Shown here: one piece after another, positions 2,327-10,717 of the stretch | Layout: the number at the start of each line of letters is the position of its first letter | Position numbering within the stretch: position 1 is the first letter of the stretch | Assembly (NCBI GenBank): GCA_030620925.1 | Contig: JAUXIQ010000033.1 | Span: forward strand, 1-10,717 | Reading direction: 5' to 3' | Origin: JAUXIQ01 sp030620925 [NCBI: Nitrospinota bacterium] | GTDB taxonomy: Bacteria > JAUXIQ01 | DNA length: 10,717 nt | Made by a program: the position numbers and the translations under genes | The notes under the pieces: model-generated | Seen by the model: the letters and a program-made list of their open reading frames with translations, nothing else | Told to the model about the DNA's origin: nothing | Database searches by the model: none

Positions 2327-3031
2327 GTGAACATCGATGTTCAGCTCCTGATAAACCTGCAGTCCGTCGATCTGAAGATAGCCATGCTCAAGGGAGAAAT
2401 CGACGCTGTCCCCGGTGAAATAGAAGAGCTCAGGCAAGAATTTCTCAAGGCACAAAAAGATCTGCAAGACCTCCTGGATGAGATGGACCAGGACGAACAA
2501 AAGAGAAAGTCTCTGGAACGCACCGTGGAAGACGAGAAAGAGGCGCTGGCTAAATCCAAACTTAAGATCCCAGAGGTTAAAACCAACAAAGAATATACCG
2601 CCCTCCTCTCCGAAATCGAGAATATGGAGAAGACCATATACGACACCGAAGATGAAATTCTCAACCTTATGGAGTTAATGGAAGAGAAGACGACATTAAA
2701 AAAAGAGAACGAAGGGGTGGTAAAGAGAGAAAATGAACATTTCAATAAACTGAAAGACCAGAAGGAAAAAGAGCTTGCAGAGTTTAACGGCGGGCTTGAA
2801 GTAGAAACCACCAAAAGGGAGCAGCTTGCCGACGGTATAAAGAGACCCCTCCTGGAACAATACGAAAGACTGAAACAGGCAAGGAACGGCATAGCCGTGA
2901 TGAACGTGGTGGAAAGCGTCTGCCAGGGATGCCACATGACCATCCCCCCCCAGGTTGTGGCGGAAATTATGACGGGAGAAGAAGTGATAAACTGCGAACA
3001 CTGCAACAGGATACTTTTCATCACCCCCTGA
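2327..3031 (+). CDS. Coiled-coil C4-type zinc-ribbon protein (zf-RING_7 / CdsZ-FlgZ-like family)
   Basis: A 234-residue protein. About the first 185 residues are heptad-like, highly charged helices (a long antiparallel coiled coil), followed by a C-terminal zinc ribbon. The four zinc ligands are visible as C199-x2-C202 (CQGCHMTIPP) and C223-x2-C226 (CEHCNRILF), in the usual spacing and with the typical IPP and R-I-L-F flanks. The family is widespread. Members have been tied to DNA stability or nucleic-acid binding, and in Helicobacter to flagellar regulation; which role applies here cannot be told. The start is GTG at 2327, preceded by GGAGA at 2315-2319. An upstream in-frame ATG at 2270 would translate through the tRNA terminator and lacks a ribosome site. 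Followed after 82 bases by the RNase H-like gene. Confidence 0.9.
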   Translation: MNIDVQLLINLQSVDLKIAMLKGEIDAVPGEIEELRQEFLKAQKDLQDLLDEMDQDEQKRKSLERTVEDEKEALAKSKLKIPEVKTNKEYTALLSEIENMEKTIYDTEDEILNLMELMEEKTTLKKENEGVVKRENEHFNKLKDQKEKELAEFNGGLEVETTKREQLADGIKRPLLEQYERLKQARNGIAVMNVVESVCQGCHMTIPPQVVAEIMTGEEVINCEHCNRILFITP

Positions 3032-3113
3032 ACTTCCACCTCCACCCCGCCCCTAAAAAGATAGTGTGAACGGATACCGGGGAGTATATATTCTATAGTA
3101 AGGAGAAACCAGA

Positions 3114-3695
3114 CTGTCACCCAAGAAACCCGAGAAGAAACCTGTAAGACGAGAACAGTATGCCAATATTCTCAAAGCTCTTGCTAAGAGCAGCGTCATC
3201 AACAAAATCGCTAAAACCGAACTTCAGGCTGACCCCAAGGAGGTGAAAAAGGCTCTTCTAGAAGGGGCGAAGGCCCTGCATCCAAAGTTAAAGAAGCTGA
3301 GGGCTTTTATAGATGGTGGCTCCAGGGGAAACCCTGGCAAAGCAGGTGCGGGGGTGGTGATATATGACGAAAAAGGAGAGGTGCTGGAGGAAAAATCAGT
3401 ATACCTGGGTGAGACCACGAACAACGTCGCCGAATACAGAGCTTTACTCATTGCACTTCAAATGGCAGAAAAAAGAGGAGCGGAAGAGCTCGAGGTCTTC
3501 GCGGACTCGGAGCTCGTCGTCAAACAGATAAGCGGGAAGTACAAGGTTAAAAATCCGGCCCTGATAGTACTTTACAAGGAAGCCAGGGAGCGGATAATCA
3601 ACCTTAAACGCTTTCAGATCACTCACATTCCCCGAAAGGAGAACAGTATTGCCGACAGGCTGGCCAACATGGCCATAGACATGGTGTCGGAGTAG
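3114..3695 (+). CDS. RNase HI-like protein with N-terminal helical extension, probable CTG start
   Basis: Ribonuclease H fold enzyme expected to cleave the RNA strand of RNA:DNA hybrids. All four catalytic acids are visible: D67 (FIDGGSRGNPG), E107 (NNVAEYRAL), D131 (FADSELVV) and D181 (ENSIADRLAN). It lacks the basic handle of E. coli RNase HI, as in the RVT_3-type subfamily. The frame stays open upstream of the first GTG (3243) back to a TAA at 3099. It encodes a lysine-rich, helical extension of about 60 residues (YANILKALAK...KKALLEGAKAL). The best ribosome site, AAGGAG at 3100-3105, is 8 bases before an in-frame CTG at 3114. The GTG at 3243 directly abuts an AAGGAG with no spacer, so it is an unlikely start. 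The total is 193 residues. The stop codon lies inside the first helix of rnpB. Confidence 0.88.
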   Translation: MSPKKPEKKPVRREQYANILKALAKSSVINKIAKTELQADPKEVKKALLEGAKALHPKLKKLRAFIDGGSRGNPGKAGAGVVIYDEKGEVLEEKSVYLGETTNNVAEYRALLIALQMAEKRGAEELEVFADSELVVKQISGKYKVKNPALIVLYKEARERIINLKRFQITHIPRKENSIADRLANMAIDMVSE

Positions 3696-4060
3696 GCTTG
3701 ATGGCCGCCGGTACCCAGTAAGGGTGTCCGGAGGAAAGTCCGAGCTCCGCAGAGCAGGGTGCTGGATAACGTCCAGCGGGGGCGACCCCAGGGATAGTGC
3801 CACAGAGAACAGACCGCCGGCCCCTCAGGGGGCAGGTAAGGGTGAAACGGTGAGGTAAGAGCTCACCAGCGGTCCGGGTGACCGGGCCGGCTAGGTAAAC
3901 CCCACCCGGAGCAAGACCAAATAGGAGGGCGTTCGAGGGTTGCTCGCCCGAGTCCTCGGGTAAGGTCGCTGGAGACGCCGTGCAAGCGGCGCCCCAGATA
4001 AATGGCCATCCCCCCGGAAAGCTCGGGGGAACAGAACTCGGCTTACAGCCTGCTCCGATT
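3687..4060 (+). ncRNA. rnpB: RNase P RNA (type A), M1-like ribozyme
   Basis: Catalytic RNA that matures tRNA 5' ends, acting with protein RnpA. Conserved blocks are visible in order: GAGGAAAGTCCG (3731-3742, helix P4 5' side); CAGGGTGCTGGATAACGTCC (from 3755); the GGTGAAACGGTG segment (from 3840) followed by GGTAAGAGCTCACCAGC; the L15 loop GGGTAAGG (3958-3965) that pairs with the tRNA CCA end; AGATAAATGGCCATC (from 3995); and ACAGAACTCGGCTTACA (4031-4047, P4 3' side). Helix P1 is 3687-3698 with 4047-4058, 12 pairs including one G-U, which sets the ends. The length of about 374 is normal. The 5' strand of P1 uses the last codons and stop of the RNase H gene. No dedicated promoter was identified, so it may be processed from a transcript starting further upstream. 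Confidence 0.97.
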
Positions 4061-7552: not shown

Positions 7553-8701
7553 TTAATATTCAAAATCCAGGATGGACTTGGCTATGACCATCCGCTGAAT
7601 CTCCGAGGTGCCCTCCCCTATCTCACATATCTTGGCGTCTCTGAAATACCGCTCTACCGGATAATCCTTGATGTAGCCGTAGCCGCCATGAATCTGCACC
7701 GCGCTGTTGACGGCCCGCCCGGCCGCCTCGGATGCAAACAGCTTTGCCATGGCCGACTCCATCGTGCATTTCTCTCCCCGCTGCCGCTTGAGGGCGGCGC
7801 GGTAAGTGAGCAGACGGGCGGCGTCCAGCTCCGTGGCCATGTCGGCCAGTTTCCACTGGATGGCCTGAAATTCGGAGATGGGTTTCCCGAACTGTTCCCT
7901 CTCTTTTGCATACCTGGCACTATCCTCCAGAGCCCCTCTGGCGAGCCCCAGGGCCATGGCGGATATGCCTATTCGGCCCCCGTCCAGCACGTCCAGGCAG
8001 TCCTGAAACCCCCGGCCCTCTTCCCCGATGAGGTTACCCGCGGGAACTTCCACATCCTCCAGTACAAGGCCCGCAGTATCGCTGCTCCTCACTCCCAGCT
8101 TGTTCTCTCTCCTGCCCACACCCAGGCCGGGCGCACCGGCTTCTACCACAAAGGCGGAGATACCCTTGCTTCCTTTCTTTAGGTCGGTTGAAGCCATTAT
8201 TACGTATGTGCCGGCCACCGAGCCGTTGGTGGTGAACGCCTTCCGCCCGTTGATGACCCATCGGTCGTCCCGAAGCGATGCCCTGCTGATCAGGCCCGCC
8301 GCGTCGCTCCCTGAGGAGGGCTCCGTGAGCGCCCAGGCGCCCATCACTTCTCCTTCCGCCAGGGAAACAACGTACCTGCGCCTCAGTTCCTCGCCGCCGA
8401 ATTTATATATATGGTACTTGGAAAGTGAGTTGTGGGCGGCTACCGTCATGCCCAGGGCCGCGTCGTGCCTGCTCAGCTCCTCGATAACCACGGCGTAGCT
8501 CACGTAGTCCAGCCCGGCGCCTCCATACTCTTCGGGTATGAGCATACCCAGGAGGTTCAGCTCCCCAAGACTCTTCATAAGGTCCCAGGGGTAATCACCT
8601 GTCTCGTCCCTGAGCCCGGCTCCTGGAGCCACTTCGGAACGTGCGAACCTGCCCACCATGTCCTTAAGCATCAACTGTTCTTCGCTCAACTCCGTGTCCA
8701 T
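7553..8701 (-). CDS. Acyl-CoA dehydrogenase, FAD-dependent (short/branched-chain type)
   Basis: Oxidises an acyl-CoA to the 2-enoyl-CoA, passing electrons through FAD to an electron-transfer flavoprotein. The 382-residue length is standard for the short-chain/butyryl/glutaryl group. Motifs: the flavin-binding signature WALTEPSSGSDAAG (123-136); AFTTNGSVAGTYVIMA (155-170); EREQFGKPISEFQAIQWKLADM (267-288); the dimer block QIHGGYGYIKDYPVERYFRD (336-355); and the catalytic base E363 in IGEGTSEIQR. The glutamate in this position is the usual one for short- and medium-chain enzymes, not the helix-G position of isovaleryl enzymes. GGGAG precedes the ATG by 7 bases. Substrate cannot be assigned. No etfAB gene is adjacent, so electron transfer to the Nuo proteins is not direct on this evidence. 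An IscR-like dyad lies in its promoter region. Confidence 0.95.
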   Translation of the reverse strand: MDTELSEEQLMLKDMVGRFARSEVAPGAGLRDETGDYPWDLMKSLGELNLLGMLIPEEYGGAGLDYVSYAVVIEELSRHDAALGMTVAAHNSLSKYHIYKFGGEELRRRYVVSLAEGEVMGAWALTEPSSGSDAAGLISRASLRDDRWVINGRKAFTTNGSVAGTYVIMASTDLKKGSKGISAFVVEAGAPGLGVGRRENKLGVRSSDTAGLVLEDVEVPAGNLIGEEGRGFQDCLDVLDGGRIGISAMALGLARGALEDSARYAKEREQFGKPISEFQAIQWKLADMATELDAARLLTYRAALKRQRGEKCTMESAMAKLFASEAAGRAVNSAVQIHGGYGYIKDYPVERYFRDAKICEIGEGTSEIQRMVIAKSILDFEY

Positions 8702-8756
8702 CTCACTTCTCCCAGCTCATCATTTAAATCCATGAATTCGGTCACTCGTCTACACG

Positions 8757-8784
8757 GTTATACCATACTAAAATAGTCTTATTT
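8757..8784 (-). promoter_or_regulatory. Promoter region of acyl-CoA dehydrogenase with IscR type 1-like operator
   Basis: On the minus strand, GACTATTTTAGT (8778-8767) matches the core of the E. coli IscR type 1 site (GACTRWWWYAGTC) at all but the last base. The outer right arm, GGTAT, also agrees. The left outer arm is poor. TATAAC (8762-8757) is a plausible -10 directly next to it. No good -35 is found at 17 bases, as is common at regulated promoters. The word TTAGTAT (8771-8765) within it recurs at the rrf2 promoter. Confidence 0.45.
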
Positions 8785-8798
8785 AGGGGCAAAATTTT

Positions 8799-9215
8799 TT
8801 ACTTAAACACCATCCCCTCCGCCAGATTATCCAGCGTTATACCTCCCAGCGTATCCATTGTATGTTCCTGCAGACGATTTAAGACCTCCTGAACGGAACA
8901 CTTGGTAAACGCGCTGCAGACTTCGCCATCTCCCGCAACACAATGATAGATGACCGGCTTTCCCTGCACCGCTTCTATAACATCCCTCACCGTTATTTCC
9001 TCAGCGGGTAGTGCTAAGGTAAACCCGCCCCCCCTGCCGCGATAAGATTTTAACAGACTGCCCCGGGCCATACTATAAAACACCTGGGCTAAAAGTTTCT
9101 GGGGTAGATTAAAAGCCTCGGCCACCTCTCCAACGTGTGACATTGAGTCCTTCCCCTTTTTTACAAGGTAGATTAGACCCAACAGTGCACATTCACCTCT
9201 CCTCGTAAGTTTCAA
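8799..9215 (-). CDS. Rrf2/IscR-family iron-sulfur transcriptional regulator
   Basis: A 138-residue winged helix-turn-helix regulator. The N-terminal DNA-binding domain (about 1-70) shows the family pattern: MKLTRRGECALLGLIYL, then VGEVAEAFNLPQKLLAQVFYSM (recognition helices), then the wing KSYRGRGGGFTLALP. Three cysteines, C92, C100 and C106, fit a cluster-binding loop. C92 matches IscR numbering, but the first spacing is seven residues here, against five in IscR. It probably senses iron-sulfur status, redox or nitric oxide; the signal cannot be told. The start codon is TTG at 9215, with a GAGGT ribosome site 7 bases upstream. A strong promoter with repeated words lies just upstream and suggests autoregulation. 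It is followed, 97 bases on, by the acyl-CoA dehydrogenase. Confidence 0.93.
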   Translation of the reverse strand: MKLTRRGECALLGLIYLVKKGKDSMSHVGEVAEAFNLPQKLLAQVFYSMARGSLLKSYRGRGGGFTLALPAEEITVRDVIEAVQGKPVIYHCVAGDGEVCSAFTKCSVQEVLNRLQEHTMDTLGGITLDNLAEGMVFK

Positions 9216-9247
9216 AACGTCTACCTCACTTCATAAACAGGATATAA

Positions 9248-9301
9248 TTAGTATTCTTTCGCATCTGTTAGTATACATCTCATAAATGCGGGTTTCAACC
9301 C
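9248..9301 (-). promoter_or_regulatory. rrf2 promoter with repeated ATACTAA words (probable autoregulatory operator)
   Basis: On the minus strand, TTGAAA (9298-9293), a 17-base spacer and TATACT (9275-9270) form a strong sigma-70 promoter. The word ATACTAA occurs at 9274-9268, overlapping the -10, and again at 9254-9248, near +10. The two copies are 20 bases apart, about two helical turns. A short inverted repeat, GGGTT/AACCC (9290-9294, 9297-9301), covers the -35. Both copies of the word sit where a bound repressor would block transcription. Confidence 0.6.
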
Positions 9302-9580
9302 TGAGACCGGCCTTTATCGTTTAGCATTGAGTCATTCCGGCAGGGGGGGTTAGAGTAAATTTTAATAACTGATAACATTCAGCGAAACTGCTCACTAAAG
9401 TCTGAGGGTTCATCCGTGATCGAGTCGGTCAAAAATCTTCTTACATAAAAATAAAACATGCGCCTGAGATGTCAATACTTTCTGGTGCTGGAATTTAATC
9501 CCATATCAGGAATAGACAGATTGCAAGGATCAGACGGATGAAGCATATTTATTAGTAGGTGATAAAAATATTAAAGCCCG

Positions 9581-9608
9581 TTGAAAATAATAAAACAGGC
9601 TATATATT
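9581..9608 (+). promoter_or_regulatory. Candidate sigma-70 promoter of the CBS-ACT gene
   Basis: TTGAAA (9581-9586) is followed after 16 bases by TATATT (9603-9608). The predicted start is near 9615, leaving a leader of about 110 bases. That leader carries TTAGTAT at 9629-9635, the same word found in the rrf2 promoter. Confidence 0.45.
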
Positions 9609-9727
9609 TAAGAGCAAAGGCGACAAAATTAGTATTATTTCAGCCTGATTTACACTACAAGCTCAATTAAAGTCAATTTTTTACCGACTTCAAGAGCGGA
9701 CAATTATCTGCAAGGAGGGTCGGAAAA

Positions 9728-10363
9728 ATGTTAGTAAAAGATTACATGCAGAAAGAACCATCAACTATTTGCGGAGAGGCCACCTTAGTTGAAGCCATGG
9801 ATTACATTCATCGAGAGGGGGTCCTGACGCTGCCGGTATTGGATGGGAAAAAAGTTACCGGAATAGTGACCGACAGGGACATCAGGAAAGCCAGCTCATC
9901 ATCCACCCGGGAACTACACGTCCACGAAATAGAGTATCTTCTTTCCAGGATCAAGGTAGCCGACATAATGAGCCGCATGGTTATCTCCGTCTCGCCTGAG
10001 CTCACAGTCGAGGAGGCGGTAAAGATTCTGCACGACAGGAAGATAAAGGGTCTTCCCGTGATGGAAAACGGCGAATTGGTGGGGCTGATCACGGTTAAAG
10101 AGGTTCTTGAATTCTTCGCCGAGCTTTTCGAGAAAAATGAAAAAACCGCCACTTTCGAGCTCAAGCTCAACGGTGATACGGACAAGCTGAGCAAGGCTCT
10201 CGAGATTATCACCTCCCACGGGGGGAACATAGTCGGCGCATTGACCGCCCCTATGGGAAAAGGGAGTCACCACAAAGAGATTATCCTTCACGTAGAGGGC
10301 GAGGACGTCGAGGGATTAAAGAAAGAGCTCATGGGCAGCGACTTGCTGTTGGCAGCGGCCTGA
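9728..10363 (+). CDS. Tandem CBS-domain protein with C-terminal ACT-like domain (AcuB-like)
   Basis: A 211-residue soluble protein, likely a sensor of adenine nucleotides or another small ligand. The first CBS domain (about 1-60) has VKDYM..P.T, LPVLDGKKVTGIVTDRDIRKA. The second (about 75-135) has VADIMSR, LTVEEAVKILHDRKIKGLPVMENGELVGLITVKEVL. The final part (about 140-205, ATFELKLNGDTDKLSKALEIITSHGGNIVGAL) has the pattern of an ACT-like regulatory domain. This arrangement is that of AcuB-type proteins, which in Bacillus are linked to acetoin use; the role in other bacteria is unclear. AAGGAGGG precedes the ATG by about 9 bases, a near-ideal ribosome site. It is divergent from rrf2 and upstream of a ferritin-like gene. 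No enzyme domain is fused to it. Confidence 0.9.
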   Translation: MLVKDYMQKEPSTICGEATLVEAMDYIHREGVLTLPVLDGKKVTGIVTDRDIRKASSSSTRELHVHEIEYLLSRIKVADIMSRMVISVSPELTVEEAVKILHDRKIKGLPVMENGELVGLITVKEVLEFFAELFEKNEKTATFELKLNGDTDKLSKALEIITSHGGNIVGALTAPMGKGSHHKEIILHVEGEDVEGLKKELMGSDLLLAAA

Positions 10364-10478: not shown

Positions 10479-10717
10479 ATGGTATGGGAGTTGTTGAACA
10501 TGCTAAAAACGGCCATCATCTTCGAGAGGGAGGGACTTGAAACATATCTCAAGTGCGCCATGCAAACGGACTCAGTCGAAGGCAAGGATATGTACGTCAA
10601 CCTCGCTCAGGACGAGCACTCACACGTGCAGAAGCTTCACGAAAGGCTTAATGAACTGCTCGTGGAGCTGCTGAAGAGAGGAGACTTAGCACCCGGGGAC
10701 TTCGAGAACATTTTCTC
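10479..10717 (+). CDS. Ferritin-like / rubrerythrin-type diiron protein, N-terminal part (3' truncated by window)
   Basis: About 80 residues are present and the frame is still open at the window end. The sequence TAIIFEREGLETYLKCA, followed by NLAQDEHSHVQKLHERL, has the paired-helix pattern of ferritin-like four-helix bundles. The E of FERE and the E-x-x-H of QDEHSH are in position to bind iron. Such proteins handle iron or peroxide in anaerobes. The start is uncertain. ATG at 10479 is preceded only by a weak GGTGGGA. ATG at 10500 has GGGAG at 10486-10490, nine bases away. The longer form gives MVWELLNMLKTAI, which resembles family N-termini. The gene is 115 bases after the CBS-ACT gene on the same strand. 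Confidence 0.75.
   Translation, partial: MVWELLNMLKTAIIFEREGLETYLKCAMQTDSVEGKDMYVNLAQDEHSHVQKLHERLNELLVELLKRGDLAPGDFENIF

What the first reader, a model, noticed from the sequence alone, without database searches (positions are those of the whole stretch)
8765..9635. Repeated word ATACTAA/TTAGTAT at three neighbouring promoters suggests a local Rrf2 regulon
The 7-base word occurs at 8765-8771 (acyl-CoA dehydrogenase promoter), 9248-9254 and 9268-9274 (both in the rrf2 promoter, 20 bases apart, one on the -10) and 9629-9635 (CBS-ACT leader). The ten bases AATTAGTATT are identical at 9246-9255 and 9627-9636. A near copy, TTAGTAG, is at 9552. All four exact copies are in intergenic DNA around the regulator gene. 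This is a natural candidate for its operator, linking the dehydrogenase, the regulator and the CBS-ACT gene.
Basis: partly seen in the sequence, partly recalled or inferred. Interest (0 to 1): 0.6.

Follow-up and report, generated by a model that had tools for sequence, protein, structure and literature searches.

The report
Rrf2 operators at three neighbouring promoters
Three neighbouring genes in an uncultured bacterium carry the same 25-base DNA switch, of the kind bound by iron-sulphur Rrf2 repressors, and copies of that switch in a distant relative sit before oxygen-defence genes, so the cluster is probably part of one small oxygen-stress circuit.

Summary
The word itself is not the operator: 101 copies in the genome, no shared flanks, and some 7-mer reaches four copies in 5-7% of shuffles. 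But three of the four copies lie in one register inside a 25-bp 9-7-9 palindrome, AAAnA(A/G)GAC-N7-GTC(T/C)TnTTT, at 8760-8784 (acyl-CoA dehydrogenase), 9235-9259 (rrf2) and 9616-9640 (CBS-ACT). The fourth (9268) is only the rrf2 -10 box. The operator was derived from Rrf2 promoters and genomes of other families; a matrix with no site of this genome ranks exactly these three first in the window (18.0, 14.8, 14.0 bits; next 4.8). None of 5000 shuffles gave two such sites. M. xanthus RisR protects a similar core, GAC-N7-GTC (PMC9973013). Other own sites precede ferritin-like, thioredoxin-like and second dehydrogenase genes, and one an unrelated-looking gene. In genome G309, six of nine sites precede oxygen-defence genes. 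Best reading: an autoregulated Fe-S Rrf2 repressor of an oxygen/iron-stress regulon, not only local. Binding is not shown.

The parts
8799..9215 (-). rrf2: Rrf2-family regulator, 138 aa, TTG start, Cys92-x7-Cys100-x5-Cys106
   Evidence: Pfam PF02082 103.9 bits against cut-off 30; the three Cys aligned in 32 of 32 Rrf2 rows
9235..9259 (-). operator A (rrf2), AAAGAATAC-taattat-ATCCTGTTT on the gene strand; holds word copy 9248-9254
   Evidence: best window score, 18.0 bits, with a matrix that has no site of this genome; 10 bases between the predicted -10 and the site
9616..9640 (+). operator B (CBS-ACT), AAAGGCGAC-aaaatta-GTATTATTT; holds word copy 9629-9635
   Evidence: 14.0 bits, third in the window; 7 bases between the predicted -10 and the site; 87 bp before the ATG
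8760..8784 (-). operator D (acyl-CoA dehydrogenase), AAATAAGAC-tatttta-GTATGGTAT on the gene strand; holds word copy 8765-8771
   Evidence: 14.8 bits, second in the window; 58 bp before the ATG, 14 bp after the rrf2 stop
9268..9274 (+). fourth word copy: not an operator, overlaps the rrf2 -10 box (TATACT, 9275-9270)
   Evidence: score -17.7 in the operator register; promoter scan
9270..9298 (-). rrf2 promoter TTGAAA-N17-TATACT (predicted)
   Evidence: 10 of 12; the scan found 3 sites where shuffles give 2.2, so a prediction only
9581..9608 (+). CBS-ACT promoter TTGAAA-N16-TATATT (predicted)
   Evidence: 10 of 12; same caveat
7553..8701 (-). acyl-CoA dehydrogenase, 382 aa; best NCBIfam model acryloyl-CoA reductase AcrC (448.8 bits, below its cut-off 640)
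9728..10363 (+). CBS-CBS-ACT protein, 211 aa (ACT 18.7 bits, below the Pfam cut-off 27)
10479..10717 (+). start of a weakly rubrerythrin-like ORF, cut by the contig end; may share the CBS-ACT transcript (inferred)
   Evidence: PF02915 18.0 bits against cut-off 22.8

Best explanation
The Rrf2 protein at 8799-9215 is an autoregulating repressor, probably Fe-S-loaded. As a dimer it binds 25-bp sites of the type AAAnA(A/G)GAC-N7-GTC(T/C)TnTTT at three promoters of the window. At rrf2 and CBS-ACT the site lies just downstream of the predicted -10; at the dehydrogenase it covers a weak possible promoter between rrf2 and the dehydrogenase. Bound protein would block RNA polymerase. Loss of the cluster under oxygen, oxidants or iron shortage would free the sites and switch on rrf2, the dehydrogenase, CBS-ACT and distant ferritin-like and thioredoxin-like genes. 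Shown: the sites, their common register, and sites of the same type at five Rrf2 promoters of other genomes. Inferred: binding, repression, cluster and signal.
For: (a) A 15-site matrix from G047, G214, G309, G360 and G091 ranks the three sites first in the whole window: 18.0, 14.8, 14.0 against 4.8 for the next. The same three lead in all four leave-one-group-out runs, and with G047, G214 or G309 alone, but not with G360/G091 alone. (b) In 214,777 positions of 40 unselected own contigs one place reaches 14.0, and that one (C112:1889) lies 50 bp before a second acyl-CoA dehydrogenase. (c) 18 of 5000 dinucleotide shuffles of the two non-coding stretches give one site of 14.0 or more; none gives two. 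(d) Six of 33 Rrf2 promoters score 17.8 or more, all 36 to 44 bases before the start codon; the next scores 8.4. Five of the six gave sites to the matrix; the window did not. (e) Own-genome place C160:2314 scores 17.2, is 18/20 identical to the B site over a 20-bp core and lies 31 bp before a MiaE_2/ferritin-like ORF. (f) RisR of M. xanthus protects T(t/g)GAC-N7-GTCC(t/a) flanked by A/T DNA and represses as holo-protein (PMC9973013, passages). (g) Six of nine G309 places precede oxygen/peroxide-defence genes. In G. sulfurreducens, 5 of 15 genes lowered by cobalt (rrf2, cydA, cydB, prx-2, a DUF4350 gene) match predicted G309 targets (PMC7726332, section 7 part 1).
Against: No binding or expression data in this organism, and no other genome of its phylum is held. 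Own sites are degenerate (3 mismatches of 16). Weak matches are no commoner genome-wide than the reversed pattern: 19 against 14 places at up to 3 mismatches; at up to 2 with R/Y, own 4 against 5, G309 9 against 8, G091 7 against 8, G360 7 against 8, G214 16 against 9, G047 2 against 0. Column-shuffled matrices at a looser threshold put three hits in these A/T-rich stretches in 2 of 300. One of the best own places (C247:5051, 17.3 bits) precedes an ORF with no redox look. Of 14 relatives' Rrf2 matches at 1e-21, only 5 carry the site, and the best match, L190 (41% identical), does not. On a poorly resolved tree the operator-bearing Rrf2s need 4 changes; 14 of 500 label shuffles are as low. No relative had a CBS-ACT or dehydrogenase match within the held flanks of up to 1.5 kb. 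The exact GAC-N7-GTC core is met in no window site: the right arm reads GTA in all three, and the A site's left arm GAT. L192 was found with a pattern taken from the window, so it is not fully independent; the L002 site is (blind dyad scan). GSU1639 is said to be under Fur control (PMC7726332, passage), so the cobalt set may share another cause.
Confidence: 0.75

Rival explanations
1. Only rrf2 and CBS-ACT are directly controlled; site D is a half-site or chance, and the dehydrogenase follows rrf2 by read-through over the 97-bp gap.
For: Site D has one perfect arm (AAATAAGAC) and one poor arm; its possible promoter TTGCCC-N16-TAGTAT is my reading, only 8 of 12, and not in the scan list; no terminator-like site was found in 8650-9800.
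Against: Site D scores 14.8, above site B, in the same register; a second acyl-CoA dehydrogenase elsewhere also has a site 50 bp upstream.
Confidence: 0.2
2. The sites belong to another regulator of the same cell: one of three other Rrf2 proteins or one of two Fur-family proteins.
For: Four Rrf2 and two Fur-family genes are in the genome; site specificity cannot be read from sequence alone.
Against: The other three Rrf2 promoters carry other palindromes (TAATTTAGGTA-t-TACCTAAATTA, TATCAC-n7-GTGATA, TCCCTA-n9-TAGGGA) and score -0.5, -1.1 and 3.3 with the operator matrix. The stretches before the two Fur-family genes score -4.3 and -3.7.
Confidence: 0.12
3. Chance: promoter words rich in A/T that resemble -10 boxes in 37% G+C intergenic DNA.
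For: Copy 9268 is just that; a 7-mer with four copies arises in 5-7% of shuffles; nearly half of the examined genome copies are coding.
Against: An operator matrix made from other genomes picks three of the four at one register; 0 of 5000 shuffles give two sites.
Confidence: 0.05

Closest known systems
RisR of Myxococcus xanthus (Rrf2 subgroup IS6)
   Same: Rrf2 protein with three Cys; imperfect palindrome with GAC-N7-GTC core flanked by A/T DNA at the -10/start region (PMC9973013, section 6 and passages)
   Different: RisR represses isc and suf; among 16 of 19 own places looked at, none stood before a gene I recognised as isc or suf; the right arm of each window site reads GTA for GTC; clade membership not tested
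GSU1639 Rrf2 of Geobacter sulfurreducens
   Same: Genome G309 has the order rrf2-cydA-cydB with operators before rrf2 and before cydA; rrf2, cydA, cydB, prx-2 and a DUF4350 gene fall together under cobalt (PMC7726332, section 7 part 1)
   Different: The window lacks cydAB; the parts of the paper that I read name no operator; that G309 is Geobacter-like is my inference from gene order
C0FN14 Rrf2 of Lachnospiraceae (preprint PMC13404960, passages)
   Same: Rrf2 next to a butyryl-CoA dehydrogenase-type enzyme, with rubrerythrin and thioredoxin nearby; proposed to leave DNA when its cluster is oxidised
   Different: There the dehydrogenase pairs with a flavodiiron protein (BOOR), which I did not search for here; no operator is given in the passages read
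IscR / NsrR / RirA / CymR
   Same: Rrf2 domain and Cys region
   Different: All below the NCBIfam cut-offs; different operators (recalled)

Membership tests
Rrf2 family | Rrf2 domain over curated cut-off | tested here: met
   103.9 bits against 30; TIGR00738 100.5 against 73.3
Fe-S-binding Rrf2 | three conserved Cys of the cluster loop | tested here: met
   Cys92, 100, 106 aligned in 32 of 32 rows; a cluster itself is not shown
IscR, RirA, NsrR, CymR equivalogs | score over NCBIfam cut-off | tested here: not met
   66.9/207.55, 59.4/193, 51.1/182, 44.6/195
RisR subgroup | operator core GAC-N7-GTC flanked by A/T DNA near the -10 | tested here: inconclusive
   same 9-7-9 frame, one arm of each window site with at most one mismatch to AAANAAGAC, exact core in L002 and L192; exact core in no window site
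RisR subgroup | place in clade IS6 | not tested
   no RisR sequence was fetched; the tree of 32 rows is poorly resolved
RisR subgroup | controls isc and suf | tested here: inconclusive
   16 of 19 own places looked at, none before a gene I recognised as isc or suf; 3 places not looked at, neighbours only partly run against Pfam, and isc/suf genes of the genome not searched for
Fur/PerR box | site at the Fur-family genes' own promoters | tested here: not met
   matrix scores -4.3 and -3.7 before the two genes; 5 and 6 mismatches to the 20-bp form in the whole loci

The most novel reading that the evidence does not exclude
A RisR-type operator (GAC-N7-GTC in A/T arms) marks a widespread, undescribed oxygen/peroxide-defence regulon of anaerobes run by Fe-S Rrf2 repressors: ferritin-like and rubrerythrin proteins, peroxiredoxins, desulfoferrodoxin, cytochrome bd, and in this lineage acyl-CoA dehydrogenases that may feed electrons from acyl-CoA into oxygen removal. 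The window is its example in a phylum with one held genome.
Probability: 0.4. Interest if true: 0.65.

Novelty: new member of a known kind. Interest (0 to 1): 0.5.

Why it matters
It turns a word seen by eye into a defined 25-bp operator with candidate target genes, which makes a regulon in an uncultured lineage directly testable. It would also join three separate reports: the RisR footprint, the rrf2-cydAB-peroxiredoxin genes that fall together in Geobacter, and an Rrf2 beside oxygen-consuming acyl-CoA dehydrogenases in gut Clostridia. My searches for Rrf2 with desulfoferrodoxin, rubrerythrin, peroxiredoxin, superoxide reductase or cytochrome bd listed no paper that I saw to describe this link of operator and regulon; I saw the listings and the passages cited, not the whole papers.

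Tried and rejected
The 7-mer as the operator: rejected. A first 20-bp palindrome GAnAnAAw-TAGT-wTTnTnTC was a step on the way; it led to the C160 place and to L192, but its centre was wrong and it missed site D. I dropped it for the 25-bp frame when the relatives showed that. The two complementary base changes of the C160 place, which I first took as support for a dyad, are no partners in the 25-bp frame and are not used. Fur/PerR box: rejected. RNA element in the leaders: at the gathering threshold Rfam gave only RNase P and a tRNA in the window. Close relatives: the search for related loci gave two remote hits; the phylum holds one genome. Synteny of rrf2 with CBS-ACT or the dehydrogenase in relatives: no match in the held flanks of 33 loci, of which 4 gave no rrf2 match in that run either. 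Rrf2 tree: poorly resolved. One search read loci with a minus-strand match on the wrong strand; mended. One search stopped with an index error after printing what I use. In one search some relatives' start positions are ends of the match, not start codons (L005, L006, L007, L008, L012, L195, L197); none of these is among the six high-scoring promoters.

Rows dropped or chosen: one search's flank profile used 55 of 56 rows (one cut by a contig end). One search listed 100 of 101 places. One search looked at 16 of the 19 places (not C368:1766, C373, C387), plus the C310 place. Of those 16, 5 are coding, 3 are the window's, 3 precede ferritin-like, MiaE_2-like and second dehydrogenase genes, 4 precede or touch the start of ORFs with no redox look (C244, C247 and two at C365), and 1 (C75) precedes no start. 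The 15 matrix sites were chosen: the rrf2-linked sites of G047, G214, G309, G360 and G091, the second G214 and G047 sites, and 8 of the 9 G309 places. Left out were G309:C1, G360:C250 and the other 2-mismatch places of G214 (14), G360 (5) and G091 (6). The two TTAGTAT places on C62 and C68 have identical flanks and may be one place.

Full report
Observation. As a word it is not impressive: 101 copies in 2,504,022 bases, against 188 for the word read backwards. Of the 96 copies examined outside the window, 47 are non-coding, 44 coding and 5 at a gene edge, and 55 non-coding or edge copies show no shared flank. In shuffles of the two intergenic stretches some 7-mer reaches four or more copies in 144 of 2000.

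From word to site. The repeat finder showed that the shared ten bases at 9246 and 9627 belong to a 20-bp repeat, 17 of 20 identical. A pair that alike arises in 8 of 1000 shuffles of 9216-9727. A search of the own genome with this 20-bp form gave a third place, C160:2313-2332, 18 of 20 identical to the second. It lies just before an ORF of the MiaE_2/ferritin-like kind.

The operator from other genomes. Among 386 genomes, 11 (own included) have an Rrf2 match at 1e-21. The L192 promoter (G214) has a similar site at the same place, and a second copy between rrf2 and a sigma-70 gene. Read together with L002 (G047, 43% identical), the frame is 9-7-9, AAAnA(A/G)GAC-N7-GTC(T/C)TnTTT. The L002 dyad had been found before by a blind dyad scan. 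A structure study of Rrf2-DNA complexes reports a central 7-bp region without base-specific contacts (PMC9338935, passages).

The test on the window. With AAANAAGACN7GTCTTNTTT the window has three places at 3 mismatches and none at 4: 8760, 9235 and 9616. Genome-wide there are 19 places at up to 3 mismatches, and 14 for the reversed control, so most weak matches are probably chance and the clustering is what counts. A matrix from 15 chosen sites of five other genomes gives the three sites 18.0, 14.8 and 14.0 bits, the next place 4.8, and one place of 14.0 or more in 214,777 background positions. Leaving out any one of four groups keeps the three on top. G047, G214 or G309 alone also does; G360/G091 alone (two sites) does not: it ranks 9235 first and 9616 fourth, with 8760 outside the top five. 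No shuffle of 5000 gives two sites. The harshest control, column-shuffled matrices at a looser threshold, gives three hits in 2 of 300. The register of the fourth copy scores -17.7.

Anatomy. Ten bases lie between the predicted rrf2 -10 and site A, and seven between the predicted CBS-ACT -10 and site B. Site D lies in the gap between rrf2 and the dehydrogenase and covers a weak possible promoter (my reading, 8 of 12). Six of 33 Rrf2 promoters carry the site, 36 to 44 bases before the start codon; five of the six had given sites to the matrix. The other three Rrf2 genes of the genome carry different palindromes at or just after a -10-like box, as if each Rrf2 had its own code. The protein has the three Cys.

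The wider regulon. In the own genome, sites also precede a ferritin-domain gene (C19, a weak site of 9.5 bits), a second acyl-CoA dehydrogenase (C112, 14.4), the MiaE_2-like gene (C160, 17.2) and a thioredoxin-like DUF255 gene (C310, 17.5). Against this, C247 (17.3 bits) precedes an ORF with no redox look, as do weaker places on C244 and C365. In G309, nine places at up to 2 mismatches precede cytochrome bd, two rubrerythrin-like genes (one below the Pfam cut-off, its site inside a called ORF that may be spurious), two AhpC/TSA peroxiredoxins (one followed by YceI and rubrerythrin), desulfoferrodoxin, a cytochrome c, a DUF3617 gene and a DUF4350 gene. G309's total does not exceed the reversed control (9 against 8), so the case rests on what follows the sites. 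Places with at most one mismatch occur in G047, G214, G309 and G360 (two each), and in none of three control genomes without an Rrf2 match at 1e-10, nor in G091 or the own genome. In Geobacter sulfurreducens five of the 15 genes lowered by cobalt are rrf2, cydA, cydB, prx-2 and a DUF4350 gene (PMC7726332, section 7 part 1). These match the predicted G309 set. The link to G309 rests on gene order, and the same paper says that this rrf2 is under Fur control (passage).

Comparison. RisR of M. xanthus was footprinted on T(t/g)GAC-N7-GTCC(t/a), represses as holo-protein and is relieved by oxidative stress and iron shortage (PMC9973013, section 6 and passages). The window sites have the same frame, but the right arm reads GTA, and I recognised no isc/suf gene behind the sites looked at. 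A 2026 preprint links another Rrf2 to a butyryl-CoA:oxygen oxidoreductase, rubrerythrin and thioredoxin by gene order (PMC13404960, passages). That offers a reason why a dehydrogenase could belong here: acyl-CoA may serve as electron donor for oxygen removal. This last step is speculation.

Verdict. Kind: a new member of a known kind, with a target set that I did not find described.

Noticed in passing
L026 (G000:C240), L032 (G000:C309), L033 (G000:C243) upstream of rrf2: The three other Rrf2 genes of this genome each carry a different perfect-arm palindrome at or just after a -10-like box: TAATTTAGGTA-t-TACCTAAATTA, TATCAC-n7-GTGATA, TCCCTA-n9-TAGGGA.
   Followed up: partly
L261 (G214:C104) 2267-2291: An operator copy without mismatch lies between rrf2 and a sigma-70 gene, so the Rrf2 there may control a sigma factor.
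   Followed up: no
L260 (G047) 2721-3935 and L263 (G091) 2556-3731: rrf2 with the operator is followed by an aminotransferase class-V gene that looks like a cysteine desulfurase (recalled), which recalls the isc link of RisR.
   Followed up: no
window 3689-4060 and 2187-2262: RNase P RNA class A directly after an ORF that looks like RNase H, and a tRNA-Met after an ORF that looks like rpoD (the two ORF names are my reading).
   Followed up: partly
G000:C203 7318-8353: Six TTAGTAT copies on one strand in about 1 kb called as coding, perhaps an internal repeat of a protein.
   Followed up: no
G000:C62 (L061) and C68 (L062): The flanks of one TTAGTAT copy are identical on both contigs: a repeat or an assembly overlap.
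   Followed up: no
G000:C365 14534-14558 and 14577-14601: Two weaker operator matches 43 bp apart at the start of a small exported-looking protein gene.
   Followed up: no
L227 (G000:C247) 1501-1525: A 17.3-bit operator place 108 bp before an ORF with no evident redox role: a chance match or an unexpected target.
   Followed up: no
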